A stretch of 64,000 nt of DNA from Porphyra umbilicalis. Taxonomy: Eukaryota; Rhodophyta; Bangiophyceae; Bangiales; Bangiaceae. The position numbers were made by a program, and so were the translations under genes. This document shows positions 17,626 to 56,161 of this stretch, piece after piece. Under the pieces are notes generated by a model. The model ran no database searches, had not been told where the DNA came from, and worked only from the letters and a program-made list of their open reading frames with translations. Each line of letters begins with the position of its first letter. Position 1 is the stretch's first letter. The stretch lies in contig KV919036.1 of NCBI GenBank assembly GCA_002049455.2, positions 42,995-106,994 on the forward strand. The letters are read 5' to 3'.

Positions 17626-17631
17626 TGTGAT

Positions 17632-18760: not shown

Positions 18761-18838
18761 AAAAAAAAACGTTTCAGCTTGCTCCTGGATCGCACTGACA
18801 CCCGTGCTCTGAGAAAAAAATGAGGGTGTAAACGCACG

Positions 18839-18894
18839 TCCCCATTCTGGAGATCGGAACGTCAAATCGCCGTTCCGTTCTCCGGAATGGGGAC
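18839..18894. repeat. Hairpin with GTCCCCATTCTGGAG arms
   Basis: About 24-bp imperfect arms flank a 9-nt loop. It resembles the GGGGTC/CCCCATT motifs near 4.9 kb and 63.4 kb. Confidence 0.5.
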
Positions 18895-18940
18895 GTTCTT
18901 TTACTCCATGGAAAAAATGGTCAACATTTGGCCCGTACTA

Positions 18941-19075
18941 CAGTGCGTTCTCGTTATATGTAAGAGACAGCTGATTCGACTCAATATGAAGAAAAAGTGG
19001 CCCACACGGACTGGAATGGAAGACTCGAGACCCATATTCTTTTGTAAACGATTCCCTGATAACGAGAACGCACTG
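18941..19075. mobile_element. 135-bp mariner/pogo-type MITE
   Basis: The inverted ends are CAGTGCGTTCTCGTTAT and ATAACGAGAACGCACTG, exactly flanked by TA at 18939-18940 and 19076-19077. CAGT termini with a TA target are typical of the Tc1/mariner/pogo group. It has no coding capacity. It sits 3 bp beyond the stop codon of gene Y in arm 1. Confidence 0.85.
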
Positions 19076-19078
19076 TAG

Positions 19079-19525: not shown

Positions 19526-20475
19526 GTTGAAGGGAGAGCGATGGAAAGTTGGGGGGCGATGGCAGACGCACAATGCCAGCGATACGAAGCAGTTGGATTG
19601 GTACGGCTAGTGGGGGCGAGGAGGGTGAGACTGCGCACCGTGCGCTGTTCGGCCTGGGGAATGGGCCAGGACGTCCTCTCCATTCCTGCCCTCTCCACCT
19701 CTTGTACATTCCGCCTGCAGCGTCGCCAGTGATTGCTCGCATGAGAGCCCACCGTGGCCCCGTACCTCAATGAAGCGTGTAGCTGGGGCCGTTGGGGCCA
19801 TCACTTCGGATGCCATCCGTGAGGAGGGACAGTGCATGCTGCTGTCACTGAAAAGGACGGACCCGTCAAAGGGGACTCCAACGTGCCCCACTGCCTTCCC
19901 AGCACCGTCCGTATCAACAGCGACAGTCGACGAAAACGGAGGAAGCGATGAGCCGGTGGCTACCGCCTGAGCCGGGGCGTCCCCGGACGACCCCCCGCGC
20001 CGTGACCGCCTGCCGATGCGACAGATGGCCCACCGAGACGCGGTGCTCGACCGGCGCGAGGCCGAATGTGCTGTGGGTCACGAGATCTACCTCGATCCGT
20101 GGATCAGAGGTCGGTCGCGCTTTGGGCCGCGGTCATGATCTATCGCGACGCCAGTGATTGGCCTAATCCCTTTCAGACAGCGTGTGTCAGATATCTCTCA
20201 ACAACCTGGGCGCGACGTCCTTTTTCTGGGGCGCGTTGTGCTTGCCATACGTTGCTGCCGAGGCAGACCGCGGTCCCCGCCCGCGGCGACGGGTTGGCGG
20301 ACCCGCAAGCACCCTATTAGCCCCCGAACTACGATCGTAGTTCGTGCTCGCGAGCACCTCCGCCGGTCGGCACCCTCTGCGTCAGTCAACCCCGCACAGT
20401 TGATCTTGAAACCAGGTTGCTTGGCCGACATGATCTTTTGTCCACTTGTGATCACATCGCGACAGAGATGTCTCT
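19526..20475. promoter_or_regulatory. Upstream region of gene Y, arm 1, with a conserved small ORF
   Basis: This 950-bp region is conserved with 23860-24784. It contains a 66-codon plus-strand frame (19770-19970, starting MKRVAGAVGA), divergent from gene Y and also open in arm 2 with about ten amino-acid changes. The frame could encode a peptide, but the conservation equals that of the surrounding noncoding DNA, so I treat the segment as likely regulatory. Confidence 0.35.
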
Positions 20476-23859: not shown

Positions 23860-24784
23860 TAACATCTCTGCCGCGTTGCGATCATAGGCCGACTGGATCA
23901 TACCTGTCAAGCAGCGTGGGTTCAAGATCGACTGTTCGGGGTTGACTGGCGCAGAGAGCGCCGACCGGGGGAGGTGCCCCTACTAGGACGGGGGTTTCGC
24001 GGGCGCTGGCGGGTCCGCCAACCCGTCGCCGCAGGCGGGGACCGCGGTCTGCCTTGGCAACGACGTATGGCAAGCACAACGCGCCCCAGAAAAAGGACGT
24101 CGCGCCCAGGTTGTTGAGAGATTTCTGACACACGCTGTCTGAAAGGGAATAGGCCAATCACTGGCGTCGCGATAGATCATGACCGCGGCCCAAAGCGCGA
24201 CCTACCTCTGATCCACGGATCGAGGTAGATCTGACCCAATTCACAGACGGCCTCACGCCGGTCGAGAACCGCGCCTCGGTGCCATCTGTCGTCTCAGCAG
24301 GTGGTCACGGCGCGGGGGGTCGTCCGGGGACGCCCCGGCTCAGGCGGTAGCCACCGGCTCATCGCTTCCTGTGTTTTCGTCGCCTGTTGCTGTTAAGACG
24401 GACGGTGCTGGGAACGCAGCGGGGCACGTTGGAGTCCCCTTTGACGGGTCCGTCCTTTTCAGTGACGGCAGCATGCAATGGCCCTCCTCACGGAAGTCAT
24501 CCGAGCTGGTGGCCCCAACGGCCCCAGCTACACGCTTCATTGAGGTACGGGGCCACGGTGTGCTCCCATGCGAGCGATCACTGGCGACGCTGCAGGCGGA
24601 ATGTACAAGAGGTGGAGAGGGCAGGAATGGAGAGGACGTCCTGGCCCATTCCCCAGGCCGAACAGCGCACGGTGCGCAGTCTCACCCTCCTCGCCCCCAC
24701 TAGCCGTACCAATCCAACTGCTTCGTATCGCTGGCATTGTGCGTCTGCCATCGCCCCCCAACTTTCCATCGCTCTCCCTTCAAC
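23860..24784. promoter_or_regulatory. Upstream region of gene Y, arm 2
   Basis: This mirrors 19526-20475. It includes the minus-strand 66-codon frame at 24340-24540 matching the arm 1 small ORF. Regulatory function is inferred from conservation and position. Confidence 0.35.
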
Positions 24785-25267
24785 ATGACGCTGCGCAAGG
24801 CCTCCACTCTCATCCTCTTTGCGGCCTCCTTTGTGGCCGTCGCTGTGCTGTCCGCCGCTCGCGCCGCCACAGCCATGCCGGCCCTCTCCATCATTGCGTC
24901 GGTTGCACAGCCGATGACCTCTGGCGGGTCCGACGCAACGGCCAACCAAGGTGTCGCACTGGTTTCAATGTTGCGCGAAGACGAGCCCGTCTACACCGCC
25001 GCAGATTGGACCAAAGCCGTGAGCGCGTGCAACAAACTCAATGCGCAATGCACGACGGCGGCGCCCAGGATGGGGGTTGTGCGCAAGATGCAGTACTGCT
25101 CGAACTGCAGGAACACCTGTTTTTATGCGTACGATTTGTCACGTTTCTTGATGGACCGCCCCGTACACGAGCTGAGACATTGGAACTTCATGGCGAGGGG
25201 GTGTTTGTTGAAGTCGCTGGAGCTCGGGAAAATCCTCAAACAGGGCGCGCGCACGATGGAGCGCTGA
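24785..25267 (+). CDS. Small secreted Cys-rich protein (gene Y, arm 2)
   Basis: The protein is 160 residues from ATG 24785. It has the same signal peptide and the same cysteine spacing as the arm 1 copy. The C-terminus is longer and ends ARTMER before TGA. Since arm 1 retains a displaced remnant of this ending, arm 2 probably preserves the ancestral form. It converges with gene X of arm 2. Confidence 0.7.
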   Translation: MTLRKASTLILFAASFVAVAVLSAARAATAMPALSIIASVAQPMTSGGSDATANQGVALVSMLREDEPVYTAADWTKAVSACNKLNAQCTTAAPRMGVVRKMQYCSNCRNTCFYAYDLSRFLMDRPVHELRHWNFMARGCLLKSLELGKILKQGARTMER

Positions 25268-26063
25268 CCACGTGACCGAGTGCAGTAAGCACAGGGGTTA
25301 GTATGTCGTGGGAGCGAGTTGTTTTACTTGCTCCATCCCGCCTGTTTGCCCTTTGTCACCAAGCAGAGTGTAGAGCGCAGAGAACAACCCCGGAGCGTTG
25401 CTATGAAAAAATGAGGCATGACAGCCGCGACAAAAAAATTGCCACCAGCACCCACGCCGTGAACCTACATGTACCACGCCACAATGGCATCCTTTCCCAT
25501 CCACTCTCTCCCGGCTCACACCAAGACATGGCCGTGAAAAAAGCCACCAGTCAACAGCCCCCCCTCCACGTCGCCCAAGCAGCGCCCATCTCACCAACCC
25601 CCGCCGCCGGCGTCCACAGCCGCCGCACGCACAGAGCTGTAGCGCTGGTCTGACATCTTTGTGCCGCACCCCAATCTCTCTTCGTCAAGCTCTGCCCTCC
25701 CCCTACCCCACCGCACCGCATTAATCGTACAGGCAATACAGCCGTGCGCGCTAGGTGGCAGGCGCCTCACATCCGCCGCTTGTCCACGCCGCGAAACTCT
25801 GAGAAGCGTCATCGTGTCCCCGCCAAGGGGCCCGCAAAGACGCGCGGCAGCCCCAGACACAGCCACGGCGGCGGCGGCGGCGGCGGCAGCGGCAGCGCGG
25901 AAGGGTCGGCATCGGTCCGCTGGCCCCCGGTGTGGCGGCCGCGGTGGAGCTCCGTCGTTGCGGCTACGGCAGGCCAGCCGCTCGTTCGAGTTGGCCGCAG
26001 CCGGGACCGGCGTCGCAGCCGACCGCCGCTGAGACTGGCGTCGTGGGTGGAACCGGCCGCCTG
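25268..26063. other. Convergent intergenic region, arm 2
   Basis: This is the 3' region of both genes, matching 16922-17631 and about 18600-18690 of arm 1 without the 960-bp insertion. No separate gene is seen. Confidence 0.4.
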
Positions 26064-27506
26064 TCAAGTCGGCGGCGGCAGCGGCGGCATTTGCAACGCC
26101 TCGCGCACCAGGCCGTCTATGTCCATGTGGTCCGACAAGGACGAGACGCATGCGCTACCCTCTGAGCTCCCAATGCTCTGCGTGGTGTCTCTCGGTCTAC
26201 GGGCGACGGGGATGGGTCGTGGCGGATACGTGTAGAACAAGCCGTCGACTGTCACGTCGTCGCCGATGCTGCTGACCATGGTGCCGTTGAGCGCCCGCTC
26301 GTGCGCCACGGCACCGGCTGCGCCACTGTCGGCGCCGCCACCCGCTGCGTCGGTGACCACCTCCCCCACCCCCCCCATGCCGCTCCGGGAACATGTGCCA
26401 GTGGCGGTGGGGCTGACGTCGCCGTCGCTGTCGTCGACTCTGCCTGCGCGGACAAGGCAGCTGACACCATTGTCCGTGCAGTACCCGCCCACGCAGTTGG
26501 AACAGCCGCTGCGGTCCACGCCGTCTCCGTCCGAGATATCTCGTGCCGCGACGGCGGCAGCCAGTCGCCGTCGGACAACCGCGACACCCGCCGTCACAGC
26601 GAGACCTGCGACCAGCGACGAGCCTATGCCAATCCCAAGGGTCACTCGCCGCCGTACGGGCCATGACAAGGATCCCTCCTTGCCCGTCCCCGCGGCAGTG
26701 GGCAGGGGCGTCAACACGCGCTCTGCCTCGCCGCGGGAGACCGGCGGCGGCGTTGATAGCGTGGCGCCGGCCTCGGCATACGCACACAAATTTCCGGTGC
26801 CGGTTGAGAGCAGCGCCCCCTTGGCGCGCGCGGGCAGCGTACCGTAAGAGATGCTTAAACGCCGCAACGGCATCGGCGCCGAGCCAGCCGTGAAAAACGC
26901 CCAAAAAGTCCACCCTGGTGTCAGCCACGCGCTGCACTCAGGCGCTAAGTGCTCCGACGGCCCGTCCGTCCATCCGAGCAGCGGCAGTAAGCCCATCGCC
27001 GCGTCCATCACGATCCGATTGACATCTTCAAGTGATTTCGACTGCATGAAGAGGGCGTTCAAGGTAGGCTTGCTGTCCAGCTTGTAGGGGGTCTTTCACG
27101 CGCCGCTTGGGGCAACGTACCACACGCGAGTCGAACAATCCTCCCCGACCACCGGCATGGCCATCTTTGTGGCGGCGCTCCATGGCGGGGGCTGGTCGGA
27201 GACGGGGTGGTCAGAGTAGGAAATGTTGACGACCCGGGGACAGCGCGCTGCGGTGGCGCCGACGGTCATCAAATGGTACTCAGCGGGCACGTCGTTGATC
27301 GTCGGGCGCTCCGGAGAGGACTCTGCTTGTCGTGGCTCTTGTGGGGACAGCGCTGGATGCACCTCAGGGGACAGCGCACTGGCACTGGCAGCGACCGCCG
27401 TCAAGGCCGCAAGTATGGCAGCGACAAAGACAGCGGTGTCGGCGACGGCATATCGTCTGCGCCGAGCGTCGCACGGGCGGCCGAGCGTGTTCAATTGCGT
27501 CAGCAT
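26064..27506 (-). CDS. Gene X, arm 2, with one in-frame TGA
   Basis: This copy is collinear with arm 1 gene X over all 480 codons: signal segment, LGWTDGPSEHL hallmark, second membrane span, poly-Pro end and TGA. A TGA at 27094-27096 follows VAPSGA where arm 1 has TCA (Ser), and the frame continues without an indel. The next codons are substituted but sensible (KTPYKLDSKPTL). Either this copy is a recent nonsense pseudogene or TGA is read through. The two halves flanking the TGA are equally well conserved. Confidence 0.65.
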
Positions 27507-27918
27507 CTCCAAGTAAGGAAAACAGGGTGAAGAGCATGCAGGACGGTGGAGGGGGACAAGTGGCAACAGCGCACGGCGTACTCAATCTGTCTCACAGGCA
27601 ATATGACCAGCAAAGAATTGGATACTGGCGAAGATGTCGCTCGGCATGGTACAGTGCAGACGTTTGGAACGGCAGCCCTACCACTAGCTGTGCGCGCATG
27701 GCAGCGCCTCGTCCCTGCTGAGCCTGCCACCCAGTCCGCCACGTGCGCCGCTGGAGACGTCTCCAGCCAGTGTGTAGACACTCTGCGGCGGAGTGTCAAC
27801 AACACGGCCGGTGCGGTGGACTGTCCAGGTCCCGCCGCACGCAGCGCGCTCGTACGGCCACGTTGGCACCGGCACGATGGAGAATCCGTCGAGAGTTTCC
27901 TAAGTTGTCTACGCGACG
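27507..27918. promoter_or_regulatory. Presumed promoter/5' region of gene X, arm 2
   Basis: This mirrors 15068-15478. Regulatory function is inferred from conservation and position only. Confidence 0.3.
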
Positions 27919-30900
27919 AGGCCCGCTGCGCCAGCGGGGGATAGGAAATGATATATATCGAGGTAGGATTTGCAAATCTAAAACAACATGCAAACGTTTG
28001 CATCTCAGTTCGGGGGGGGGGGGAACGCCTGCCGTGCCGCCACGTGGGGGGGTGGGGGAGCGGATTTCGGGGCTTCTGGGGGGGGGGGGGGTTCGAGCGG
28101 GGATGATGCCACGTGCGAGGAATGGTACTTCACAACACTCCTTTTACCCCTTGTACTCGTGTCTGTGCATAACCGTCTGCCTCGGTATTGCTCCAGCTCG
28201 TCCGACACTGCTACTGTTTCCCGCGCATGTTCCTGGCCACCCCCTTGCCCAGGTGACTGCCGCCTCCTCCTTGCTGATCGTTTCCCCCCTCCCCCCGCGC
28301 GGTAATCGCCCCCCCCCCCTCCCCCTGATCGCCGCAGTCTAAGCGCGCCACCGCCCCCCCCCCGCTTCTGGCTGCCGCCGTTCCCGCGTGCTCCGCGGCG
28401 GTGGCGGCGGCGAGCGTGTCCGCCTCGACGGTAGATGAGTCAGAAGTAACACCCCGCGCAGTAAAAAGGACGGGGGTATGCAGCGGGCCTGCGGCCGCGC
28501 CGGGAGCAGAGAGAGTTGTGGCGGTGACACGCTGCAGGATGCTGGCTCACCCCCCCGCCACCACCCGGCTTCGTGAGGCTACCTATGGTTGCAGCGGTGA
28601 TGGAGGGGGGATGACGCTGAAAAGAGGACACAGCAGCAGTGGGGCGAGACAACAACAGCAGGGGAAGGTGGCAGAAATAGGGGGAGACCGCGCTGGTCGA
28701 TGGGGCTGTGCAAAGATGGGGGCGGCGACGCTGGAGGGGGACATCAGTGGTAGTGGGGGGCAGCAGTGGCGGGGGGAGGCAGCGGTGGGGGAAAAATGCA
28801 GTGTTGTTGGAGGGAGGCAGCGGTGGTGAAGGGAGGCAGCGGTGGAGGAGGGAGGCCGCAATGGGGGGGAAAGCACTGTTGTGGTGGGAGCGGCGACGCT
28901 GGGGGGAGCCAGCAACGGCGGAATTCAGCAGGCCTCCAAACAGTCACGACAGCGGTCGTTGCTGCCGTGGCGACACCGCGCAGCTGGGACACCGCCCAAC
29001 TGAGAGAGGCATGGGCACTGAGCAGACAGGAGAGACCTCCATCAACAGGTGCGTCAGGACCCCCTCTGACAGCGTGTGAGATCCACTGTACACGGCAGAT
29101 TGACGCTGACACTGATCAATCCAGTGAATCACGTGTTGGTGCTGACACTGTCCAATCCAGTGGGTTACGACTCTACGCTTCCTTTTCTGCCTACAACTGT
29201 TCTGTTTCTTTTCTCGCAGAATAAACGTCACCACATGCCTCGTACAGTACTCTGTGCCCATTCTTATTAGTTTCCACATGAGTTGGTATGGTCTGGTTGT
29301 CGCGTGGTACTCAGCTGCCATCTGGTCTCATGAGAAGGAGCGGACGGCACGTCTGGGAGGAACTTGACCAAAACATCACTTTTTTTTTAAAGACTCGTTT
29401 CTGAACCTTTGAAGAGTCCTGGGAACGGCATTGTAACTGGCTAAGCGTACAAAGGCTTCCTTCATGCTCTTTGCACCCCCCGAAGGTCACAACTCCTACC
29501 ACCGAACCTGGAAACTGCCACCACCTCCCCACTGTGCTCAGCCTGTGGGCTAGCCAACTTTTGGTGTGCGTGCTCACCACACACCCTATACTGTGTGTAG
29601 AGCCCGAAGCACCACATCAGCAGCCCCACTGGAACCACATCAGCAGCCCCACTGGACGCCCACAGAACGTACGTGGTGCTTTCGATCAACCCAGCAGTCA
29701 GCACATGGTGGGCGTGGGTCTCTTGCACACCAGGCATCCGGTGAACTCTACTCAGACTCGTTTATAGCTCGGGGGTATCCCCCTCTCCCACAGCCGCGGC
29801 GCGCAATCCCCCTGTGTGGCCGCCAGCCACCCCACCCACCGACCGCCCACTCTGACACCCGCCGCTGCTAGCCGCCGCCGCTCGCTGGCCCCCTCACTAG
29901 CCCCGCAGCCAACCAGCAGTTGCGGTCGGCCACCACCCCCATCGACCGCCCACCTGCACAGGCTCCATCGCCGCCCGCCGCTAGCCGCCCCCACCGCCGG
30001 CAGACTGACGCCAATCGACCCCGCCGTCGGCCGCTCCCGCCGCCGGCCGCTCCCACCACCAGCCACTCCCACCACCAGCCCCCGCCGCCAGGTACCCCAC
30101 CCGCCGACCACCCAACCTAAGACCCGCCTCAGCCAGAGGCCACCTCGCTCGCCGGTCGCCGCGCCCGCCAGCGCCCGCCCCCACCTCCGTCCACGCCTAC
30201 GGCCGGCTGCGCCCGCCGACGGCTGTCCCACAGTAAGCCGCTCCCGTTGCCCGCCGCTCCCGCCGCCCACCGCTCTCGCCGCCCGCCGCCCCCGCCGCCC
30301 ACCACCCCCGCACAGGCCGCCCCCGAACAGGCCGCCCCCGCACAGGCTGCCCCCGCCACCCGCCGCCCCTGCCGCACGCTGCGCCCGTCGTCGCCCCCAC
30401 CGGCCGCCGCCGACCCCTTCACATGGGGGAGCGGAGAGGGGCAAGGGCGAAGGTCGCTGCGCCGCGTCGGGAGAGCCACGGCGCGGCGCGGCGGAAGGCG
30501 GTGCCCGCTGATACCGCCAGCCCCCGGGGTAAAGGGTGAGCACACAAGGGGGCCTGGGACAGGGGAAGAGGAGGAAGGCGGCGGATAGGACAGGGGGGAG
30601 GCAATGTGGGGGCGGGGGTCGAACCGGGGCGGGTGGCGCAGCGCGGTGCGACGGGGCACGGGGTGGTGCCCGTCCCCGCCACCGGCCCCCCATGGGCGGA
30701 ACGCGAAAGCAGGGGAGAGAAGAGTAGAGGGATAGAAGCGGGGGAGCAGAGGGAGAAGAGGGGAGCAGCGGGGGGGGGGGGGGAGGGGGGCGTGGGGAAG
30801 GGGGGCGTGGCAGGCGGGCGGGACAGGTGCAATACAGCCGCGACACGTGCATGACGGCCGACACGGCGGTAGGACGATGTGGCTCGGAGCATCGGGCGGG

Positions 30901-31231
30901 GGGGGGGGATGGATCACATCTGTGCAAGGGGTGCCGCACAGCATCCTGGGGGGGGGGGTCGGCCGTGCGTGTCGCCATCACCACCGACATTCCATACCTC
31001 GCCATGGTATTGCAATAGCGAAGCAGTAAATGCAATGGCCGAGGCATTCCCTTCTGGGGCCTGGGACTCGTGCTGGACGCACGGCCGCAGCAACGAGCAG
31101 CGAGCGCTCTCAGAGCTTCTCAGCTGTTTTGAGATGCAAACGGTTGCATGTTGTTTTAGATCCTGGGATCCTACATGTATATATCCCCCGCTGGCGCAGC
31201 GGGCCTCGTCGCGTGGACAACATGCGAAACT
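27888..31231. repeat. Palindromic MITE split by a Mutator-like element
   Basis: The left half (from CGTCGAGAGTTTC through TTGTCTACGCGACG) lies before 27960. The complementary right half lies at 31177-31231. Together they reconstitute the 14982-15067 palindrome plus an outer GAGAGTTTC / GAAACTCTC pair. Confidence 0.75.
27960..31176. mobile_element. Non-autonomous Mutator-like element, copy 1
   Basis: The element is 3217 bp. The ends are GAGGTAGGATTTGC and the complement of ATGTAGGATCCCAGG, and both continue into ATCTAAAACAACATGCAA. A 9-bp target duplication with one mismatch flanks it (ATATATATC at 27951, GTATATATC at 31177). A 9-bp duplication and long inverted ends fit the Mutator superfamily. 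The interior is G-rich minisatellite (about 28720-28900), Pro/Ala/Arg-type GC repeats (about 29830-30420) and poly-G runs. No transposase was recognised. It lies inside the palindromic MITE of arm 2. Confidence 0.7.
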
Positions 31232-31346
31232 CTCGACGCCAGGCAGCCATCCATGATGGATGCCTGCCTTGTGACGCCCCGCGGCTAAAAGCCGGGCGGG
31301 GCCCCGCCCTCGTGCGGGGCCCGATCCTGGACTCTGCGCTCGTGGC
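31186..31346. repeat. Hairpin-rich segment shared with 14853-15066
   Basis: This is an inverted match to arm 1. It contains the CAGGCAGCCATCCAT palindrome and GGGGCCCCGCCC hairpins, and ends in the hAT target CTCGTGGC. Confidence 0.6.
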
Positions 31347-31582
31347 TAGGGTTGTGCATCACGCCCCTTTTTGGGTGGTGGGGTGGGCGATGCAGAGGTA
31401 GGATTTGCATATCTAAAACAACATGCCAACGTTTGCATCTCAGTTCGGGGGGGGGGGGGACGCCTGCCGTGCCGCCACGTGGGGGGTGGGGGAGCGGATT
31501 TTGGGGCTTCTGGGGGGGGGGGGGTTCAAGCAGGGATGATGCCACGTGCGAGGAATGGTACTTCACAACACTCCTTGTACAG

Positions 31583-32565
31583 TAGGGTTGTGCACCACGC
31601 CCGGGGCGTGCTAAATTGCACGCCTGGGGCGTGCAATTTCACGTGTTTTGGGCGTGTCACGCCCTGCACGCCCAGAATTTTAGGGGCGTGATTGGGGCGT
31701 GCTTGAAAAAAAAGTACATAATTTTAAATGCGCTCTTGGTGCGCCAGTCCACCGAATATTTTTCGGTGCAGTTCCGTGCCACCTTCGTTACTTTTTCAGG
31801 GCGCGGTGTCTTACTGCTCCGTCGAGCGTCCACAAACAAGGTGCTCGACGCTATGAGGCGTGGGGACTATTCTTCCGTCGTGTGCCCACAAACAAGGTGC
31901 TCGACGCCATGATGCGCGGGCGCCATCTGTGCGGGATGGGCACAGCAACGACCACCTGCTGTCATCAGCCAGGGAGGACGCAGAGGGGCTCCTCGACACG
32001 GGCGCCAATGAGCACGTTGAATGCGACGCATCGCGCGCCAGCCATGACCAGGCCGATGGCAGTGATGGATGGGGCGCCGGCGGCGAGCTAAGCGCCTCCT
32101 GAACGAGGAGGTCGCCCGATGCGCCACGGCTGGCGCCGGCATCCCTGGACAGGATGTTGGTCGTCCCGGCGACGAGGACGCCCCCGCGGTCGTGACCGAG
32201 ATTGATTTGATGACCATCTGCTCTGGCTTTGTGCGCGGTGAGATGGGTGAGACTGGGGGCGGTGGGGCAGCCGGTGGAGGCCAGGCGAGCCGACGTCCCG
32301 TGATGCTGCAATGCATCCTTGACGCAGAGTGGCAGAGGCCAAGAGAGTGTATCACGTGTTTTCTGGCATTTTCGTGGTCCTTTGAAGCATCCAAATTGCA
32401 AGAATATTGGGTACTTTGAATCGCCTGTCAATTAAGTGTCAAAACATGGGGGCTACATTAAGGGCGTGAAGAGGGGCGTGCCAATGATGGGGGCGTGCAG
32501 AAGGGCGTGATTAGGCGTGCATCGCCCACCCCGCCACCCAAAAAGGGGCGTGATGCACAACCCTA
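31583..32565. mobile_element. Inner hAT element (983 bp)
   Basis: The ends are TAGGGTTGTGCACCACGCCC and GGGGCGTGATGCACAACCCTA. The perfect 8-bp duplication TTGTACAG lies at 31575-31582 and 32566-32573. The duplicated target includes the first three bases (CAG) of the adjacent mariner, so the hAT inserted into the mariner terminus. The interior has a direct repeat CCACAAACAAGGTGCTCGAC at about 31829 and 31887. Its sub-ends match the outer hAT. No transposase was recognised. Confidence 0.9.
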
Positions 32566-32570
32566 TTGTA

Positions 32571-33912
32571 CAGTCAGTGAGCAATTTTATCCGTACGATT
32601 TTGCAACTTTTTTTCTATCCCGGATCAAGTCCCGCAATCGGATTCCATGCACCAGCACGCGCCACAGTTCTCGACTTTGCCTCCACATGCATCGGCAGCG
32701 TGCGTCTTCGTGCGCCGACAGCTGACCCCCCCCGGACCAGAGCGCGGCCACCAACCACCATGGGGGGACGCACTCGTCGTCCCCTGTCCGTCGGCGAACA
32801 AGAAACAATTTCTACTCTCCTCCGGCAGGGAAAGTCACTTGCTGCTATTGGTACGATTCTGGGGCGGCCGAAGAGCCTCGTCGCCTACGCGGCGGAGGTG
32901 GCGCGGGAGACGGACGACGGTGCCAAGGTGGACAAACGGGGCCGCCCCAAGTTCCTGACGGAGCGAGAGCTGCGCTCCCTGCGCCGCGCCGTGGACGAGA
33001 ACGGCTCCTCCACAATCCGGGCGTTGACGGAGAAGGTCAACCAGACGCGCACCCAGGCGGCTGGAGGCTCCCATAAGGGTCCCGTCTCCACCTGGACGGT
33101 ACGGCAGGCCTTCAAGGCCATGGGTTTTGAGTCCCGCGTGGCTTCCAAAAAACTCTACCTGTCGGACCGGAACAAGGCGAAGCGGCTGGTGTGGTGCTCA
33201 GAGCGCAAGGACTGGACGATGGAGTGGGCATCGGTCTTCTTTAGCGACGAGAGCTCGTATGTCGTCCGGGACGCGAGCGTTCATCGCGTTTGGCGTCGAC
33301 CTGGCGAGCGGTACTCCCCATCTCGGCTGCGCCCAACCTTTAAGACCGGCCGCCAGAGCGTGATGGTGTGGGGGGCTTTCTCGGCGCTGGGACGGTCACC
33401 TCTGGTGCGCTGCGAGGGCGAGATGACGGCGGTCTCGTACGGCGCGCTGTTGGAGGAGCACGTTGTGCCCAGGATTGTCGAGGACTACGGCTCGACGGAC
33501 GCGGCCTGGTTCCAGGAGGACCTGGCGCCCATCCACACGGCCAAGTTGTGCAAGACCATCAAGGATAAGCACGGTATTCGCGTCCTTCCCTGGATGGCGC
33601 AGAGCCCGGACCTCAACCCCATAGAGAACGCGTGGGGCGAGCTGGAGCGCCGGCTGCGGCTGCGACCGAGGATGCCCAAGACCAAGGACGAGCTGTTTGC
33701 TGCTCTGCGTCAGGAGTGGGAGGCCGTCCCCACCTCTTTCTTCAAGGCTTTGGCGGAGTCAATGCCTCGACGGGTGAAGAAGGGGAGTGAGGCAGGGGGT
33801 GCGAGCACCAAGTATTGACCAGCATAGAGCGTGGAAACGATGATTGCATATTTGCAAAAAGATCCGCACGAATCTCAATATTATCCGTACGGAAAAAATT
33901 GCTCACTGACTG
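32571..33912 (+). mobile_element. Tc1/mariner transposon
   Basis: The inverted ends CAGTCAGTGAGCAATTTT (left) and AATTGCTCACTGACTG (right) are flanked by TA on both sides (32569-32570, 33913-33914). Mutator-like copy 1 has the empty site (CTCCTTTTACCCCTTG near 28140). The full 1342-bp element has an intact transposase. The left tip is duplicated at 31580-31582 because a hAT inserted there. Confidence 0.92.
32760..33818 (+). CDS. Tc1/mariner DD34E transposase, apparently intact
   Basis: The protein is 352 residues from ATG 32760 (ACCATGG context). The N-terminal helix-turn-helix region (about residues 7-50) has a KSLAAIGTILGRPKSLV recognition helix. A second HTH-like segment with GRPKFL and a HKGPVSTWTVRQAF linker follows. 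The catalytic triad is Asp163 in FSDESSY, Asp254 in QEDLAPIHTAK and Glu289 in SPDLNPIENAWGELERRL. There are 34 residues between the last two, as in Tc1. No internal stop or frameshift occurs, and the stop is TGA. The usual QDNAP is here EDLAP. It cuts and pastes the flanking inverted repeats at TA. It is the only clearly intact transposase-plus-ends unit in the window. Confidence 0.93.
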   Translation: MGGRTRRPLSVGEQETISTLLRQGKSLAAIGTILGRPKSLVAYAAEVARETDDGAKVDKRGRPKFLTERELRSLRRAVDENGSSTIRALTEKVNQTRTQAAGGSHKGPVSTWTVRQAFKAMGFESRVASKKLYLSDRNKAKRLVWCSERKDWTMEWASVFFSDESSYVVRDASVHRVWRRPGERYSPSRLRPTFKTGRQSVMVWGAFSALGRSPLVRCEGEMTAVSYGALLEEHVVPRIVEDYGSTDAAWFQEDLAPIHTAKLCKTIKDKHGIRVLPWMAQSPDLNPIENAWGELERRLRLRPRMPKTKDELFAALRQEWEAVPTSFFKALAESMPRRVKKGSEAGGASTKY

Positions 33913-36900
33913 TACCCCTTGTACTCGTGTCTGTGCACGACCGTCTGCCTCGGTGTTGCTCCATCGCGTCCGACACTGCTACTGTTTCCCACGCATGTTC
34001 CTGGCCACCGCCTTGACCAGTTGACTGCCACCTCCTCCTTGCTGATCGCTCCCCCCCTCCCCCCGCGCGGTAATCGCCCCCCCCCCCCCCCCTGGTCGCC
34101 GCAGTCTCTATGCGCGCCGCCCCCCCCCCCCGCTTCTGGCTGCCGCCGTCTCCGCTTGCTCCGCAGCGGTGGCGGCGGCGGGTGTTTCCGGCTCGACGGT
34201 AGATGGGGCAAAAATCACACCCCGCGCAGAAGAAGGACGGGGGTAGGCAGCGGGGCTGCGGCCGCGCCGGGAGCAGAGAGAGTTGTGGCGGTGACACGCT
34301 GCAGGATGCTGGCTCACCCCCCCGCCACCACCCGGCTTCGTGAGGCTACCTATGGTTGCAGCGGTGATGGAGGGGGGATGACGCTGAAAAGAGGACACAG
34401 CAGCAGTGGGGCGAGACAACAACAGCAGGGGAAGGTGGCAGAAATAGGGGGAGACAGCGGTGGTGGAGAAAGCTGTGCAACGATGGGAGCGGCGACGCTG
34501 GGGGGAGACAGCAGTGGTAGTGGGGGGCAGCAGTGGCGGGGGGAGGCAGCGGTGGGGGAAAGAGGCAGCGTTGATCGAGGGAGGCAGCGGTGGAGGAGGG
34601 AGGCCACAATGGGGGGAAAAGCACTGTTGTGGTGGGAGAGGCGACGCTGGGGGGAGCCAGCAACGGCGAAATTCAGCGGGCCTCCAAACAGTCACGACAG
34701 CGGTCGTTGCTGCCGTGGCGACATGGCGCAGCTGGGACACCGCCCAGCTGAGGGAGGCATGGGCACAGTGCAGGCAGGAGAGACCTCCATCAACAGGTGC
34801 GTCAGGACCCCCTCTGACAGCGCGTCAGACTCATTGTACACGGAAGATTGACACTGACACTGGTCAATCCAGTGAATCACGTGTTGGTGCTGACACTGTC
34901 CAATCCAGTGGGTTACGACTCTACGCATCTTTTCCTGCCTACGACTGTTCTGTTTCTTTTCTCGCAGAATAGACGCCACCACATTCCTCCTACAGTACTC
35001 TGTGCCCATTCTTCTGAGTTTCCACATGAGTTGGTGTGGTCTGGTTGTCGCGTGGTACTCAGCTGCCGTCTGGTCCGATAAGAAGGAGCGGAAGGCACGT
35101 CTGGGCGGAACTCGACCAAAACATCACTTTTTTTTTAAAGACTCGTTTCTGAACCTTTGAAGGGTCCTGGGAACGGCATTGTGACTTGATAAGCGTACAA
35201 AGGCCTCCTTCATGCTTTTTGCACCCCCCGAAGGTCACAACCCCTACCACCGAACCTGGAAACTGCCACCACCTCCCCACTGTGCTCAGCCTGTGGGCTA
35301 GCCAACATTTGGTGTGTGTGCTAACCGCACAGCCTATACTATGTGTAGAGCCCGAAGCACCACATCAGCACCACCACTGGAACCACATCAGCACCCCCAC
35401 TGGACGCCCGCAGTACGTACGTAGTGCTTTCGATCAACCCAGCAGTCCGCACATGATAGGCGTGGGTCCCTTGCACACCAGGCATCCGGTGAACTCTTTT
35501 CAGACTCGTTCATAGCTCGAAGTTATCCCCCTCTCACACAACCGCGGCGCATAATCCCCCTGTGTGGCCGCCAGCCACACCACCCACCGACCGCCCACTC
35601 CGACACCCGCCGCCGCTAGCCGCCGCCGCCCGCTGGCCCCCCCGCCAGCCCCGCCGCCAACCAGCAGTTGCGGTCGGCCACCACCCCCACCGCCCGCCCA
35701 CCTGGACAGGCTCCATCGCCGCCCGCCGCTGGTCTCCCCCGCCGCCGGCATACAGACGCCGATCGACCCCGCCGTCGGCCGCTCCCGCCGCCGGCCGCTC
35801 CCACCACCGGCCACTGCCACCACCAGCCCCCGCCGCCAGGTACCCCACCCGCCGACCACCCAACTTCAAACCCGCGGCAGCCAGCGGCCACCTCGCCCGC
35901 CGGCCGCCGCGCCCGCCAGCGCCCGCCTCCACCGCCGTCCACGCCTACAGCCGGCTGCGTCCGCCGGCGGCCGTCCCACAGTGAGCCGCTCCCGTTGCCC
36001 GCCGCTCCCGTCGCCCGCCGCTCCCGCCGCTCGCCGCCCCCGCCGCCCGCCGCCCCCACACAGGCCGTCCCCGCACAGGCCGCCCCCGCACAGGCTGCCC
36101 CCGCCACCCGCCGCCCCTACCGCACGCTGGGCCCGTCGTCGGCTCCACTTGCCGCCGCTGACCCCTTCACACGGGGGAGCGGAGAGGGGCAGGGGCGGAG
36201 GTCGCTGTGCCGCGTCGGGAGAGCCACGGCGCGGCGCGGCGGGGGGCGGTGCCCGCTAGTACCGCCAACCCCCGGGGTGAAGGGGGAGCGCGCAAGGGGG
36301 GCTGGGACAGGGGAAGGGGAGGAAGGCGGCGGATTGGGCAGGGGGGAGGCAATGTGGGGGCGGGGGTCGCACCGGGGCGGGTGGCGCAGCCCGGTGCGAC
36401 GGCGCAGGGGGTAGTGCCCGTCCCCGCCACCGGACCCCATGGGCGGAACGCGGAAGCAGGGGAGAGAAGAGTAGAAAGGATGGAAGCGGGGGAGCAGAGG
36501 GAGAAGAGGGGAGCAGCGGGGGGGGCGCGGGGGGGGGGGCTGGGGGAGGGGGGCGTGGCAGGCGGACGGGACAGGTGCAATACGGCCGCGACACGTGCAT
36601 CACAGCCGACACGGCGGTCGGACGGTGTGGCTCAGAGCATCGGGAGGGGGCGGGGGGATGGATCACTTTTGTGCAGGGTGTGTCGCACAGCATCCTGGGG
36701 GGGGAGGGGGTCGGCCGTGCGTGTCGTCATCACCACCGACATCCCATGCCTGGCCATGGTATTGCAATAGAGAAGCAGTAAATGCACTGGCCGAGGCATT
36801 CCCTTCTGGTGCCTGGGACACGTGCTGGACGCACGGCCGCAGCAACGCGCAGCGAGCGCTCTCAGCGCTTCTCAGCTGTTTTTAGATGCAAACGTTTGCA

Positions 36901-37117
36901 TGTTGTTTTAGATCCTGGGATCCGACATGGCGATGCACGCCTAATCACGCCCTTCTGCACGCCCCCAACATTGGCACGTCCCTCTTCACGACCCTAATGA
37001 AGCCCACATGTTTTGACACTTACTTGATAGGCGATTCAAAGTACCCTATATTCTTGCAAATTGGATGGTTGAAAGGACCACAAAAATGCCAGAAAACATG
37101 GAGGAAACAGCTGCATG

Positions 37118-37880
37118 TAGGGTTGTTGAGTGCGCCCAGGGCGCTCATTTTGGGCGCATTTTAGGCGCTCAATGGGCGCTCAGAGGGCGCTCGAGCGCCC
37201 AGCGCCCACGGTTTCCTGGGCGCTTTGATGGGCGCTTTGAATAATAACTGTCGTAACATTTTAACTACGTGGTCGACCGAGTGCCCGACGATTCTCTCTG
37301 CAGCCTCTATGGGGGCGCAGCCCTGGCTGCAGGTGCCCCAGCGGTAAGGCGGGAAGGGCCCGGCAGGAGGTGGCGATGGCAGCAGCGATGGCCGTCGTCT
37401 TGGCGCCAGAGCAGCTGCAACCTTCTCAACCACCTCCCGCGACTGGAAGACATCTTTGGCAAGGATATCTACTTGGCCAAGGCTGCAGACGTGATTATGT
37501 CGGCGTGACTGTGTATGGTGTGGGTGTGTTTCTTGTCCTCATGGCCCGACGGTCTGGTTGTCTACATCACCACCTGGAACGTATTCAGCTGTTCTCTTGT
37601 TTGTCCTTGGGAGCTGCCGCTGTGGGCGGCACGCAGACACATTAAGGCTTGCGGATGACCGTCAACAGTCCTTCTTTCACATGCATGGAGAAATTCACAG
37701 ATGGTCGCTAGTTTCCACGAAACACAGTCAAAATGTAAGAAAAGAGGGGGCTACCTGATCATTTATGGGTGCTACAACGGGCGCTTGAGGGGTGCTCAGG
37801 GCCCACTGAGTGCTCAAAGGGCGCTCAGGGGCGCATTATGCACCAGCGCCCCGAAAATCGGGGCGCACTCAACAAGCCTA
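37118..37880. mobile_element. Second nested hAT element (763 bp)
   Basis: The ends are TAGGGTTGTTGAGTGCGCCC and GGGGCGCACTCAACAAGCCTA. The perfect 8-bp duplication GCTGCATG flanks it (37110-37117, 37881-37888). It has GGCGC-rich subterminal repeats. The interior resembles 5107-5321 and 62671-63297. It has no transposase and is inserted in the outer hAT. Confidence 0.88.
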
Positions 37881-38042
37881 GCTGCATGCGATACTTTGTA
37901 CAGTTTTTGCCAAGCACGCCCCAATCACGCCCCCAAAAATTCTGGGCGTGCCGGGCGTGACACGCCCAAAACACGTCAAATCGCACGCACCATGCGTGCA
38001 ATTTAGCACGCCCCGGGCGTGATGCACAACCCTACTCGTGGC

Positions 38043-38190
38043 TCAGCCGCACAATGGTATGGAAAAGAAATGGAAGAGGAATGGAATTTGTCTTGTCAGG
38101 GCACTCTGTCAACGAACATTTAATTTCATTGGAGAGATCAACCTCGAAAAAGAAGAGCGCAGGGGTGGATTGCCCGTGTTGAGCCCACCC
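38043..38190. other. Unique sequence between hAT and CACTA-like element
   Basis: This stretch is duplicated at 62350-62508 in reverse. No gene is seen. Confidence 0.5.
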
Positions 38191-40012
38191 CACAGCACGT
38201 TGTCAAATTGGGTCACGGAGAACTTAAAATATATGCGAACCGTGAGAGGTCGTGAGAGAAATGTTTTTCCATGCAGCAAACCTCGTGACACCATCCTCGC
38301 AAATGTCGCTGTGTCGATCTCTAAAAGGCCCTGTCTGAGAAGGCTTTCTGACACCCCCAGAGACCTTCTTACCCCACCCACCTGGTCACCCCTACCCATG
38401 TGCGTACTCGTCTACTCCCAATAGCTGCGGGCACCGCCCAACCACGGACACTTGTGCTTGCCTCCTTTCCTGTCCTCTCCCACTCCTTTCTCCTGCTGGC
38501 AGGGGGGGGGGGGCGAGGGGGGCTGCACATACATGCCGAGGGGGTCGGGGAGGATGGGGGCGCAAACGGTGTCGCTAGAGTGGGACGGCTGCTGGCATTG
38601 CCGTGCAGAGCTCTGGCAGGGTCATGGGGCAGGTCCTCCTTGCGCGATCAAACGGCACCCTTCACACCCAGTTCAAGGCAGACTTGGCGTACACAGTATG
38701 CATTCTTGCGGGCACATGGAGACCTCTGCTCGGACGCCTCACCGTCGTAGCTTGTGTCAGCCAGACTTTGTTCAGTACCTGTTGGCATGATAGTCTGCTA
38801 CCAATGGGGACCCAGGATGCGCCCCCGGTCAACCGGGCAGCCAACCAGCGGGCTGGAAAACGTCAAGCCTTGTGCTTGGGGATAGCGGGGCGATTAGTAA
38901 TAATTCGAAGTGCTGGGCGGCGCCAATGCGCGCCCTCGGCATGTGTGCAGGTGACTGCCATGCTGCCCCCAGCCCCGCTCCTGGCTGCCGCCCAAGTGCA
39001 CAAGTGCTGCCAACATCCCCGCTCGCTCTCCTGGCCGACCGCTCGGCCCACCCTCCTGGCGGACCGCCCCGCCCACCCTCTGGTCGACCGCCCCACCCAC
39101 CCTCCTGGCCGGAAGCCCCGGCCACCCTCTGTTCGATCGCCCCGCCCACCCTCCTGCCGACCGCCCTCGTTCCTGTCGTATTCTTATCTGCATCCCCTCC
39201 ATCCCACGCATTCTCTCCAGCTCGCACGGGGGCGGGGGGGAGTCACTCTACGACGGGCCGGACGACGTTTGCAGTCGCTGGACTAGTGGTGGTGGCGATT
39301 GGGTGGGGATCCACACTGGCGCAGTGTGGATAGTGTGACGCGCGCGGTGGGTGGGTGGTGGATGGGTTGGATGAACTGACCACGTACTTCTTTTTCGTGT
39401 TCGCTCGCCCGTCCCCCATGTATCCTTACCATGCATATGTGCGATGGCTTCCTCTTTCTTGGCTTCTGTTTCTTTGCAAACCAATGGGTGTTGCTGACAT
39501 CGAAGTCGAGTAACTTGTGTCATACGCACATGCATGCGTGGTGTCCGCGAGTCGCTGACATGGTGAGCTTGCTGTTGTCCGGTGGCCTGTAGCTCTGTCA
39601 GAGTTTGCGGCTGTGTGCAGTTAGCTACATGTCTGCGTGACTCTGTAGCACACCGTGGCTTTCTTATCGATTTCGTGTCTGCTCTGCCACCCGTGCCCGC
39701 GCCGAGCAACAATAAAGCGACCGTGTCTTTCAATGCATCTTTGGCATGTATCCTCAATGCTGGCCGGTGTCACATCCTTTCCTCCGTCAGGGTCTTGCTC
39801 CACTTCTTCCCCGAGACCTCCGAGGGATCATTGCGGCGAGTCTCGCAACATATGTCTCGAAGGATGTGAACTTCTCCTTAAAGATTGGGCAAAGAGGAGT
39901 TATGTACTCATTTTCGATCTCTCTCTGAACGCAAAGGGGTCGAGCAGCAATACGGTTCGGCCTTGTTGCAGATACCTTGGAACCTGACACGAGATTTCAT
40001 CAACGCGCTGTG
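38191..40012. mobile_element. CACTA-like non-autonomous insertion (1.8 kb)
   Basis: The imperfect inverted ends are CACAGCACGTTGTCAAAT and, from the right, CACAGCGCGTTGATGAAAT. The duplicated locus at 62350-62365 is an empty site, showing only a CC duplication. Short duplication and CACAG-type ends suggest the EnSpm/CACTA group. The interior has a decayed tandem of about 27 bp (CCGCCCCGCCCACCCTCCTG units, about 39035-39165) and no transposase. Confidence 0.6.
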
Positions 40013-40164
40013 CCACGGTCACCGCCGCGGGCCCTGCTCGCGCACCACGGTCACGGCCGCGCCGTTGCGCCCTTTCCAAGACCGCGGCAGGGCAGCCGCT
40101 CTTTCCGCCACACCGTGTCTCCGGGCAAACCCCAGGGAAAGCCCTAGGCCAATGTGGTCAGCCG

Positions 40165-40739
40165 TGTAGTGAGAGGCTAGGTTGCTCACGCGCGCGCCCG
40201 GCTAGATTGCGTGCGCGTGTGCTCGTTCTCCTCCGCGGTAGCTAGACGCAGATGAGAAAAGGGTAAACGCTCTGTCATCTCCCTTTGCGCCTGGGGCAAG
40301 CCCCCGGGGCGCGTCCTTATATACCCTCTCAAGCGGCGCCCGCTCTCCTCACGGCACCCCGCCTTCTACCCACACTCCCCCAGCACGCCCTGCCCGCGCG
40401 CTCCGTGCGGGCTCACTCTCCCCGGTGCGGGCCCCCACGCCCGCCCCGGTTTGCAACCCGCCAGGAGCGGTGCCCAGGCAAGGTCGCCGCTGCCCGTGTG
40501 AAGCCGTTCCGCGTCCGCCCCCCCGCGCCTGCCAGGACTCCTCCACATCTTGGCCGGCGGTGACCCCACGTCGTTGGCGCGGCTGGCCGCTCAGCCCGGC
40601 CGCCTGCCGTAAGTCGCGGCTGCCATAGGTTGCCCCGAGACGGGGACACCCACGGCGGCCGCCACCTGCCGGAGGACTTAACCGGGGTGCCGTGGGCGCG
40701 GGGAGCACTTAGTAGTTGCTCCCTCCCGCCCCCACAACA
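40165..40739 (-). repeat. 3' LTR of copia B
   Basis: It is 575 bp, TG...CA on the minus strand, with a TTATATA promoter box at about 40317. The left target copy is AGCCG at 40160. Confidence 0.9.
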
Positions 40740-40760
40740 CTCGCCCGCGGGCGTCGACCC

Positions 40761-43478
40761 TCAAAGAGCGTAGGCCACGGGCCCCTCGGCGGTTAGGCAC
40801 GTCGTGTACGCCGGGACCGGCAGGGGCTTCGTGAGGATGTCGGCTGCCATCTCCCCCGTGGGGCCGTGCTCAGGCAGCAGCTACTTGTCGGCCACCTTCT
40901 CGCGTACGAAGTGGTACGCGATATCGATGTGCTTCGTCTTTTGCGAGGAGACCGGGCTGTGCATGACCGCCAGCGCGCTCTGATTGTCGCATCGCATCCG
41001 AATCGGCGCCGCCGTCACCGTCAGGTCCTTTATCAGGCGGGACAACCATACAGCCTCCTTCGCGGCGGTCGCCGCCGCGATATACTCCGACTCGGTCGTC
41101 GAGTGATCTACCGACGGCTGGCGCTTGCTTGTTCAGCTGACGGCTGCACCGTTGAAGGTGAACACGTAGCCCGTAGTGGACCGCCGCGTGTCCAGGTCTC
41201 CGGCGTAGTCAGCGTCACTATACCCGACCATCGCCGCGGCGCTTCCGTACGTAAGGCCTAGCGACGCGGTCCCCTTAAGGTAGCGTAGGACTGTCTTGGC
41301 CGCCGCGAGGTGCTCCATTGCGGACGCAGACACGTGCCGCGTCAGCTGCCCCACGGCGACCGAGATGTCCGGCCGCGTTCCCGTCGCCAGGTACAGTAAC
41401 GAGCCGACCAGCTCCTGGTCGGTCTTGATCAGAGCCCCCATCAGGGGCTTCCCGTCCTTGGTGAGGCGGGCACCGACCCCCATCGGCAGACGCACCGGGT
41501 TGGCCTTGTCCAGGCCAAACTGCTACAGCAGGGTGGTGACGTACTGGTGCCGCCCCACCTGCAGGGTCCCCATATCCGTGTCTCGGACGATGTGAAGCCC
41601 GAGGAAGAACGACGGCTCCCCCATCTCACGCGCCTTGAAGACGCCGGTGATCGCCCCCTTGGCCAACTCTGCCGCGGTCTTTGTGGCGGCCGCCACCCAG
41701 AGGTCGTCGACATAGATGAGGATGAACACAACCACGTCCCTTCGTCCGCCCTTGTCAAGACACGGGTCCGCGTCGTAGGGCGTGAAGCCCGCCGCGAACA
41801 GGACCGCGTCCAGCTTCTTGTGCCAGGCCGGTGCGGCCTGCTTCAGGCCATAGATCGCCTTCACCAGGCGGCAGACTTTGGTAGTGTCGCCTCGCTCATA
41901 CCCCTTGGGCTGACGCGCGTGGATCTCCTCCTCCACCTGCCCGTTGAGGAAGGCGGTCTCGGTGTCGAGCTGCAGGATTGTCATCCCCTCCGCCGCGCAG
42001 TGCGCGAGAAACGTGCGTAGTGTGGTGTAGCGCACCACGGGCGCCCACACCTCGTCTTAGTCGAGCAGGTACGTCTGCTTGTCCCCATGGCCGACATACC
42101 GCCCCTTCCAGCGGACCACCTTGCCGTCCGGTCCGCGCTTGTGCTTACACAGCATCTCGGTGTCGGTCACCGTCTTGGCCGGCGGCAGGTCGGTCAGATA
42201 CCAAGTCCCGTTCTGCCACAGGGCGTCGACCTCCGCCTTGACAGCAACTTCAAACGCCGCCCAGACCGGTGCGCGTCGCGCCTGGTGGATGCGCATCTTG
42301 TCGGTAACACGCCCGCCCTTCGTGGCGAGCGCCCAACCAAGCGCCCCCAAATGTGTCCCCGCCGTCGCGGCCGCCGTACTGGCGTGACCCCGCTGCGGCG
42401 GGTGGGCCCGCAGCAAACGAACCGGGGAGCGGGATGTAAACGCCTAGGTCGCCGCGTCCGCGCGGGGGGGGGGACAAGGCCGCGAGTCCGTCGGGGCCGC
42501 CGCCACAACATCGCCATCCTCCGGGGCGCTGTCAGCATCCTCCGACCCGCTGGTTCCCTCGCACCCTACGTCGCTGCCGTCCAAATCGTCGGACGCGGTG
42601 GCGTTGGCGCGGGCGGAGGAGGCCAACACGCGAGCAGCCGCGATGGCAGCATCAATCGAAGCGTCGAGTGCCGGCGCCGTCGAGCCGCCCGTCGGGTTTG
42701 CGTGTCCCATCCGCATGGGAGCCTCGGGGGTGGCGACGTCGTGCCCGCCGACAGCATCGAGCTCCGCAGGAACGTGGACGTAGGCAGAGTCAGTAGGCAC
42801 TCGAAGCACTGCAGAGCGCGTGCGCGGGGAGGGCAGGGAGGTGTCGGCCGACTCGGAAAAGCGAACGTCACGGCTCGTCTCCACCTCTCCGTCCACGAGA
42901 ATACGGGAGCCCCTTTGGTCGATCCCATACCCGAAAAAAATGCCCTCGACCGCTCTCGGCGACAGCTTGCCCCGCAGCGCGGTTGGCACGTGCACCCATG
43001 CGCGGCACCCAAACGGCCGTAGGTGCGCCACGTTGGGGCGCACCCCGTGGAAAAGCTCGTACGGCGTGACGGACTGCTGCCGCCCGACCACCCGGTTGCC
43101 GAGGTATTTCACGGTGACGGCTGCCTTGGCCCAATACTTGCGGTCCAGCCCGGAGTCGAGCAATGCCGCCATCATGAGCTCCACGACGACTCGGTTGTAG
43201 CGCTCCGCTACGCCGTTTGACTGCAGCGTGTAGCGGGTGGTCGGCTGGTGCTGCACGCCTTTCTCGGCAAGCCACCGGGGCCAATCCCTACCGGTATACT
43301 CCTTTCCGCGGTCGGAGCGAACAACCTTGAGGCGCTTCCCCATTTGTACCTCCCATCGGTTGACGACGGCGATGACCACGTCCTTGGCCTCCCCGTTCGT
43401 CTACACCGGCACGAGCGCCTTGAAGCGCGAGTAGTCGTCGATGACGCTGACCATGCAGACCGCGCCCTCGGCGAAGCT
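40761..43478 (-). pseudogene. Copia B integrase-RT-RNase H remnant
   Basis: One uninterrupted frame without indels holds stops at 43401 (TAG, where copia A has CAG), 42444 (TAG), 42057 (TAA), 41523 (TAG), 41133 (TGA) and 40881 (TAG). The last four are also in copia A. Integrase has the second Asp (VRSDRGKEYTG) and the Glu (NGVAERYNR). RT has YVDDLW. RNase H has GYSDADYAGD and an intact CDNQSA where copia A is mutated. The element cannot be autonomous without gag and protease. Confidence 0.88.
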
Positions 43479-56127: not shown

Positions 56128-56161
56128 GATTGTACGCCATGCATGGCCCGCTCCAACGCAA

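What the first reader, a model, noticed from the sequence alone, without database searches (positions are those of the whole stretch)
31347..38034. Five transposons nested inside one another, order fixed by target duplications
Each insertion has its own duplication: outer hAT CTCGTGGC, Mutator-like element GGCGATGCA (9 bp), mariner TA, hAT in the mariner tip TTGTACAG, second hAT GCTGCATG. All duplications are perfect. Subtracting the inner insertions leaves 3199 bp for the Mutator-like element, against 3217 bp for its sibling at 27960. Mutator-like copy 1 also keeps the mariner empty site. This gives a relative timeline of hAT, Mutator, mariner, then hAT activity.
Basis: partly seen in the sequence, partly recalled or inferred. 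Interest (0 to 1): 0.7.

Follow-up and report, generated by a model that had tools for sequence, protein, structure and literature searches.

The report
Four-deep transposon nest plus side insertion
Five mobile DNA elements landed one after another at this spot, four stacked inside each other and one beside them, and matching uninterrupted sites elsewhere in the same genome back the order; it is a well-preserved but ordinary example of how transposons pile up.

Summary
All five insertions are at the stated places with exact target duplications. For four of them the target survives uninterrupted elsewhere in the same 83.8-Mb genome; for the inner hAT, whose target is a junction, the mariner half does. 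Four corrections. (1) The "Mutator-like" element makes an 8-bp duplication (GCGATGCA), not 9: its right end is CATG, and 11 of 13 copies with both ends read have exactly 8 bp, against 6 of 13 for the 9-bp reading. No MULE domain was found in the genome. Its superfamily is open. (2) The outer hAT and the hAT in the mariner tip are one family in opposite orientation, so hAT-A inserted before and after the middle elements. (3) The second hAT lies in the outer hAT only: the nest is four levels plus a side branch that cannot be ordered against the inner three. (4) The "mariner" is Tc1-type (DD34E) with an uninterrupted 352-aa transposase frame. The order is of insertions at one locus, not of family activity. 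Nested transposons and chronologies read from them are well known; interest is modest.

The parts
31347..38034 (-). Outer hAT (hAT-A family, internally deleted; 374 bp of its own sequence); duplications 31339-31346 and 38035-38042 (CTCGTGGC). Strand is relative to the inner copy, which is called +.
   Evidence: Exact TSD and TAGGGTTGTGCATCACGCCC ends; residual length; matches the inner copy inverted, lacking about 640 bp of its middle; empty site at G000:C84 (L099).
31395..36929 (+).
   Evidence: Ends set by comparison with 12 other genome copies whose two ends were read; uninterrupted site in 20 of 20 hAT-A loci tested.
31580..33912 (+). Tc1/mariner-type element, 1342 bp of its own, TA at 31578-31579 and 33913-33914
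   Evidence: Inverted repeats, TA and length; three other full copies 96-97% identical; empty site in 10 of 10 loci of the 3.2-kb element and its sister family.
32760..33818 (+). Uninterrupted 352-aa transposase frame, DD34E (D163, D254, E289)
   Evidence: Translation; Pfam DDE_3, HTH_Tnp_Tc3_2 and HTH_38 over their cut-offs; triad spacing.
31583..32565 (+). Inner hAT (hAT-A, full 983 bp) in the tip of the mariner-type element; duplications 31575-31582 and 32566-32573 (TTGTACAG)
   Evidence: 30 of 42 listed genome rows span all 983 bp, the window's own included; the left tip is uninterrupted in the three other mariner-type copies.
37118..37880 (+). Second hAT (hAT-B, 763 bp), in the right part of the outer hAT; duplications 37110-37117 and 37881-37888 (GCTGCATG)
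   Evidence: 41 rows of genome matches; empty site in L088, the one place found.
27960..31177 (+). 3.2-kb element copy 1 (sibling), 3218 bp, between the arms of a palindrome; 8-bp duplications 27952-27959 and 31178-31185 (TATATATC)
   Evidence: the same palindrome without the insert in the inverted duplicate near 14964-15085.

Best explanation
The locus records five cut-and-paste insertions. A short, internally deleted hAT-A copy landed in a repeated host sequence. A 3.2-kb non-autonomous inverted-repeat element with 8-bp target duplications then landed 48 bp from its left end (duplicated bases included). A Tc1-type (DD34E) element landed at a TA about 185 bp inside that one. A full hAT-A copy then landed on the left junction of the Tc1-type element. 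Separately, at an unknown time after the first step, a hAT-B copy landed in the right part of the outer hAT. Shown: boundaries, duplications and empty sites. Inferred: that transposases made by other copies moved the four elements that carry no recognisable transposase gene.
For: Exact duplications at all five. Uninterrupted sites: 3.2-kb element in 20 of 20 hAT-A loci tested; mariner-type element in 10 of 10 loci of its host family and sister family; inner hAT, mariner half only, in 3 of 3 loci (L050 and L051 overlap); hAT-B in L088, the only place a genome search for that site returned; outer hAT in L099 with 4 mismatches of 40 and one intact CTCGTGGC, and more weakly in L100 and L101, which have one and two changes inside the 8 bases. 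Each family makes the same duplication elsewhere: hAT-A exact 8 bp in 9 of 20 loci plus 3 with one mismatch, hAT-B 13 of 20 plus 2 (each 20 includes the window's own copy); 3.2-kb element 11 of 13; TA at 4 of 4 full mariner-type copies. The genome holds 125 hAT dimerisation-domain matches.
Against: No autonomous partner was tied to hAT-A, hAT-B or the 3.2-kb element; in 10 of 10 hAT transposase loci read (1500 bases on each side) the motif TAGGG[TC]TGT or its complement is absent. 8 of 20 hAT-A loci and 5 of 20 hAT-B loci do not show the duplication within one mismatch (four of these 13 have one end missing), and 2 of 13 copies of the 3.2-kb element show none (C4, C68). The loci for the outer hAT and hAT-B empty sites were picked by searching for those very flanks. 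The window is one assembly of a repeat-rich place, without reads to check it.
Confidence: 0.95

Rival explanations
1. One reading: the 3.2-kb element is a Mutator-like element with a 9-bp duplication.
For: The 9 bases GGCGATGCA do stand on both sides in the window, and 6 of 13 copies allow a 9-bp reading.
Against: 11 of 13 copies have exactly 8 bp with the right end read as CATG; in 5 of those 11 the ninth base disagrees, the right-hand base being G each time, as the element's own end would give. Sister family 3 of 3 with 8 bp. MULE domain PF10551: 0 matches in the genome. A MULE with 8-bp duplications and a divergent transposase is not excluded.
Confidence: 0.07
2. The nest is partly an assembly or recombination product: repeats of the same families were joined falsely.
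For: The region is full of repeats and inverted duplications, and the outer and inner hAT are related inverted copies.
Against: Five exact duplications and the uninterrupted sites; misjoins do not create matching duplications.
Confidence: 0.03
3. The 3.2-kb element belongs to another superfamily with 8-bp duplications (KDZ/Zisupton, P or hAT) and is moved by its transposase.
For: 8-bp duplications; KDZ domains occur in the genome, 28 places of which 19 pass the cut-off; Zisupton makes 8-bp duplications (PMC12730594, passages read).
Against: Compared by eye, none of the 28 KDZ places lies next to one of the 38 TIR places; the nearest on one contig are about 16 kb apart (C342). T at position 2, favoured by hAT, is in 0 of the 11 exact duplications (hand count). 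P transposase was not searched.
Confidence: 0.35

Closest known systems
Nested transposons and interruption-based chronologies (TRANScendence, PMC5657132; REANNOTATE, PMC2672092; interruption analysis, PMC2517846)
   Same: Younger elements split older ones; the nesting gives a partial order (passages of PMC5657132 read; the other two seen in the search listing only).
   Different: Here one locus only, all DNA transposons, with uninterrupted sites found for each step in the same genome.
hAT superfamily (non-autonomous, MITE-like members)
   Same: 8-bp duplications biased to nTnnnnAn, the pattern stated for Hermes in PMC10368747 (passage read); TAGGG-type ends.
   Different: No recognised transposase inside; no autonomous partner with these ends identified here.
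Tc1/mariner superfamily, DD34E (Tc1-type)
   Same: TA duplication, short inverted ends, HTH plus DDE_3 domains, DD34E triad.
   Different: Not mariner in the strict sense (DD34D; recalled, no call).
Mutator-like elements (MULE)
   Same: Long inverted ends and, in the window alone, an apparent 9-bp duplication.
   Different: 8-bp duplication in the genome copies; no MULE domain found in the genome.
Merlin and KDZ (Zisupton) superfamilies
   Same: 8-bp (Zisupton) or 8- to 9-bp (Merlin) duplications (passages read).
   Different: Merlin ends are described as 5'-GG (PMC8101967), here GAGG and CATG; no KDZ gene seen beside these ends.

Membership tests
hAT (outer and inner, hAT-A) | 8-bp target duplication | tested here: met
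   Exact in 9 of 20 loci, one mismatch in 3 more, 8 without.
hAT (second, hAT-B) | 8-bp target duplication | tested here: met
   Exact in 13 of 20 loci, one mismatch in 2 more, 5 without; two pairs of loci share the same 8 bases and may be duplicates.
hAT (hAT-A, hAT-B) | target bias nTnnnnAn | tested here: met
   Of exact duplications, T at position 2 in 5 of 9 and 7 of 13, A at position 7 in 6 of 9 and 9 of 13; a bias, with no test of significance made.
hAT | hAT transposase inside, or in a partner with the same ends | tested here: inconclusive
   125 hAT-domain places in the genome; no TIR motif near 10 of 10 loci read; only a part of the 294 TIR places was listed.
Mutator-like | 9-bp target duplication (8 to 11 in the literature, recalled) | tested here: not met
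   The 9-bp reading fails; 8 bp in 11 of 13 copies and 3 of 3 sister copies. 8 bp alone would not exclude a MULE.
Mutator-like | MULE transposase in the genome | tested here: not met
   PF10551: 0 matches; 3 of 14 control genomes rang. Divergent MULEs could be missed.
Tc1/mariner | TA duplication | tested here: met
   4 of 4 full copies.
Tc1/mariner | DDE triad with spacing DD34E (Tc1) or DD34D (mariner) | tested here: met
   DD34E; Pfam domains.
Merlin | 5'-GG termini | tested here: not met
   Ends GAGG and CATG; criterion from PMC8101967. Merlin transposase was not searched.
KDZ (Zisupton) | 8-bp duplication and a linked KDZ transposase | tested here: inconclusive
   Duplication met; no linked KDZ place seen by eye.

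The most novel reading that the evidence does not exclude
The 3.2-kb element, its sister family (ends GAGGTAGTATTTG) and a third set of ends (GAGGTAGGATTTGACAA) form a non-autonomous lineage with 8-bp duplications and asymmetric outermost bases (GAGG at one end, CATG at the other in the two families read), whose transposase belongs to no superfamily recognised so far.
Probability: 0.08. Interest if true: 0.4.

Novelty: new member of a known kind. Interest (0 to 1): 0.22.

Why it matters
It is a clean, testable example of relative dating by nesting, in which each step has an uninterrupted reference site in the same genome. It shows one short non-autonomous hAT family inserting both before and after two other kinds of element. 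It also shows how a flanking base that happens to match an element's terminal base can turn an 8-bp duplication into an apparent 9-bp one and mislead classification from a single copy.

Tried and rejected
Mutator membership by transposase: PF10551 gave nothing. KDZ: 28 places, none seen beside the ends. Looking for coding content in the 3.2-kb element: long frames at 29752-31119, 33910-34851 and 35620-36414 match no Pfam family at E 0.001 and are put down to the G+C-rich sequence. Autonomous hAT-A partner: TIR motif absent from 10 of 10 transposase loci; the listed TIR places (a part of 294) compared by eye with the 125 domain places gave none enclosed. The inverted duplicate at 14800 as an empty site for copy 2 of the 3.2-kb element: no match within 8 edits, so not used. 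The listings showed no paper on this locus; the organism is not known to me, and a red alga was only a guess from the G+C content.

Rows dropped or awkward: in the count of 3.2-kb elements C14 was left out because its left end did not match the TIR pattern; C190 and C650 have the same flanks and may be one insertion held twice, and C4 and C648 share a right flank. In one search the loci on the reverse strand failed to give both ends; they were redone, where loci with one end missing (L013, L019, L025, L035) are counted as failures. In one search L050 and L052 were read in the wrong orientation; one search corrects this, but its L051 row repeats L050 (the two copies lie 85 bp apart), so the L051 frame is taken. 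L050 and L051 overlap, so the 3 of 3 mariner loci are two places.

Full report
What is there. All duplications are exact.

The duplication of the 3.2-kb element is 8 bp, not 9. Both ends could be read in 13 copies, the two of the window included. 11 have an exact 8-bp duplication when the right end is CATG; the 9-bp reading is exact in 6; C4 and C68 have neither. In all 11 the base in question is G, as expected if it belongs to the element, and in 5 of the 11 it differs from the left flank. With CATG the left and right ends pair without a gap: 8 of the outer 16 bases, then 30 bases alike or nearly so (hand count). A sister family, with different terminal 50 bases but about 91% identity over 211 bases just inside, has 8-bp duplications in 3 of 3 copies read. 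In the window the base left of the duplication is a G by coincidence. The genome gave no match to the MULE domain PF10551. I therefore call it a non-autonomous inverted-repeat element with 8-bp duplications, superfamily open. KDZ domains are present (28 places, 19 over the cut-off), but none was seen beside these ends.

The two hATs in the chain are one family. Inverted-repeat analysis and direct comparison show that the left 209 and right 138 bases of the outer hAT match the inner hAT in reverse, with about 640 bp of the middle missing and about 27 bases in its place. The inner one is a full-length copy of a 983-bp family: 30 of 42 listed rows span it whole, the window's own included, 91-100% identical (only 40 of 232 candidates were scored). 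The second hAT is another family, 763 bp. Both have 8-bp duplications, in 9 of 20 and 13 of 20 loci exactly and in 3 and 2 more with one mismatch, biased to T at position 2 and A at position 7, the pattern given for Hermes (PMC10368747, passage read).

The mariner-type element. It has TA on both sides, 1342 bp of its own, and an uninterrupted 352-aa frame with Pfam DDE_3 and Tc3-type HTH domains. The triad is DD34E, so it is Tc1-type. Three other full copies exist, 96-97% identical, and their frames are also uninterrupted (L051; L050 and L052).

Empty sites. Each target was sought as the two flanks joined with one copy of the duplication. The site of the 3.2-kb element is uninterrupted in 20 of 20 hAT-A loci tested (L010-L028 and L088): 13 with one mismatch of 39, 6 with two, 1 with four. 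The inner hAT itself, not in that count, holds the site too. The mariner-type site is uninterrupted in 10 of 10 loci (7 of the element, one being copy 1, and 3 of the sister family); two of the seven and the three sister copies have the G of TTGTA, the other five a T. The mariner tip is uninterrupted in 3 of 3 loci; for the inner hAT this is only half of the target, since the other half lies in the 3.2-kb element. The second hAT's site is empty in L088 (3 edits of 40), the only place that a genome search with up to 3 mismatches returned. The outer hAT's site is empty in L099 (G000:C84): the window's left flank 31273-31346 and right flank 38035-38171 meet there with the 8 bases shared. L100 and L101 show weaker versions with one and two changes within the 8 bases.

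Order. The chain is outer hAT, 3.2-kb element, Tc1-type element, inner hAT. The last step is firm because the inner hAT's target includes bases of both the 3.2-kb element and the Tc1-type element. The second hAT is only known to be later than the outer hAT. L088 (G000:C41) shares the left flank from 31212 on, with a gap of about 20 bases, and the outer hAT at the same site, but neither the 3.2-kb element nor hAT-B; its own hAT is cut short at the other end. This agrees with the outer hAT being older than both. The outer hAT's left end also stands at the same site in an inverted duplicate of the flank within the window (14800-15020 against 31394-31182, 89.6%), so it was there before that duplication; copy 1 of the 3.2-kb element is missing from the duplicate's palindrome, so it came after (inference). 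A second inverted duplication carries part of hAT-B and the right end of the outer hAT (37254-38190 against 63296-62360, 98.4%), so hAT-B was there before it (inference).

What it does not show. Order of insertion at one place is not order of family activity: hAT-A stands at both ends of the chain. The copy-to-copy identities (3.2-kb element 92-96% for full hits over the left 180 bp and 92.5% between the window copies' right pieces; hAT-A 91-97%; hAT-B 90-98%; Tc1-type 96-97%) overlap and do not date the steps.

Known or new. Nested elements and chronologies drawn from them are established (PMC5657132, passages read). This is a new, well-documented locus of a known kind. That I found nothing in print on the locus rests on the listings only.

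Noticed in passing
14800-20471 and 23862-31394: Inverted segmental duplication in pieces, about 89-94% identical, holding the outer hAT's left end at the same insertion site in both arms and the 3.2-kb copy 1 in one arm only.
   Followed up: partly
37254-43477 and 58897-63296: Second inverted duplication, 97-98% identical in two pieces, with a breakpoint inside hAT-B (37254/63296), including the outer hAT's right end and a stretch with copia-like repeats.
   Followed up: partly
38191-40012: A sixth element, about 1.8 kb, with ends CACAGCACGTTG/CACAGCGCGTTG and about 2 bp (CC) duplicated; its empty site is in the duplicate at 62360. The ends recall CACTA/EnSpm elements (recalled, not tested).
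   Followed up: partly
27887-27943 and 31182-31238: 57-nt palindrome arms around copy 1 of the 3.2-kb element. The inverted duplicate near 15000 has both arms without an insert; C128 and C175 have one arm joined straight to the flank next to the outer hAT's site.
   Followed up: partly
2304-4418 (-): 704-aa frame matching Plant_tran and DDE_Tnp_4, taken as a Harbinger-type transposase (recalled).
   Followed up: no
47160-48455 and 55572-60317: Frames with copia-type gag and integrase-region domains; repeats of about 520-575 bp lie nearby.
   Followed up: no
L050/L051 (G000:C74:257196-259962): Two full Tc1-type copies facing opposite ways, 85 bp apart, both with uninterrupted frames.
   Followed up: no
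L085, L086, L087: Sister family of the 3.2-kb element: other terminal 50 bases (GAGGTAGTATTTG...), related interior, 8-bp duplications, about 3.4-3.5 kb; a third set of ends GAGGTAGGATTTGACAA is listed.
   Followed up: partly
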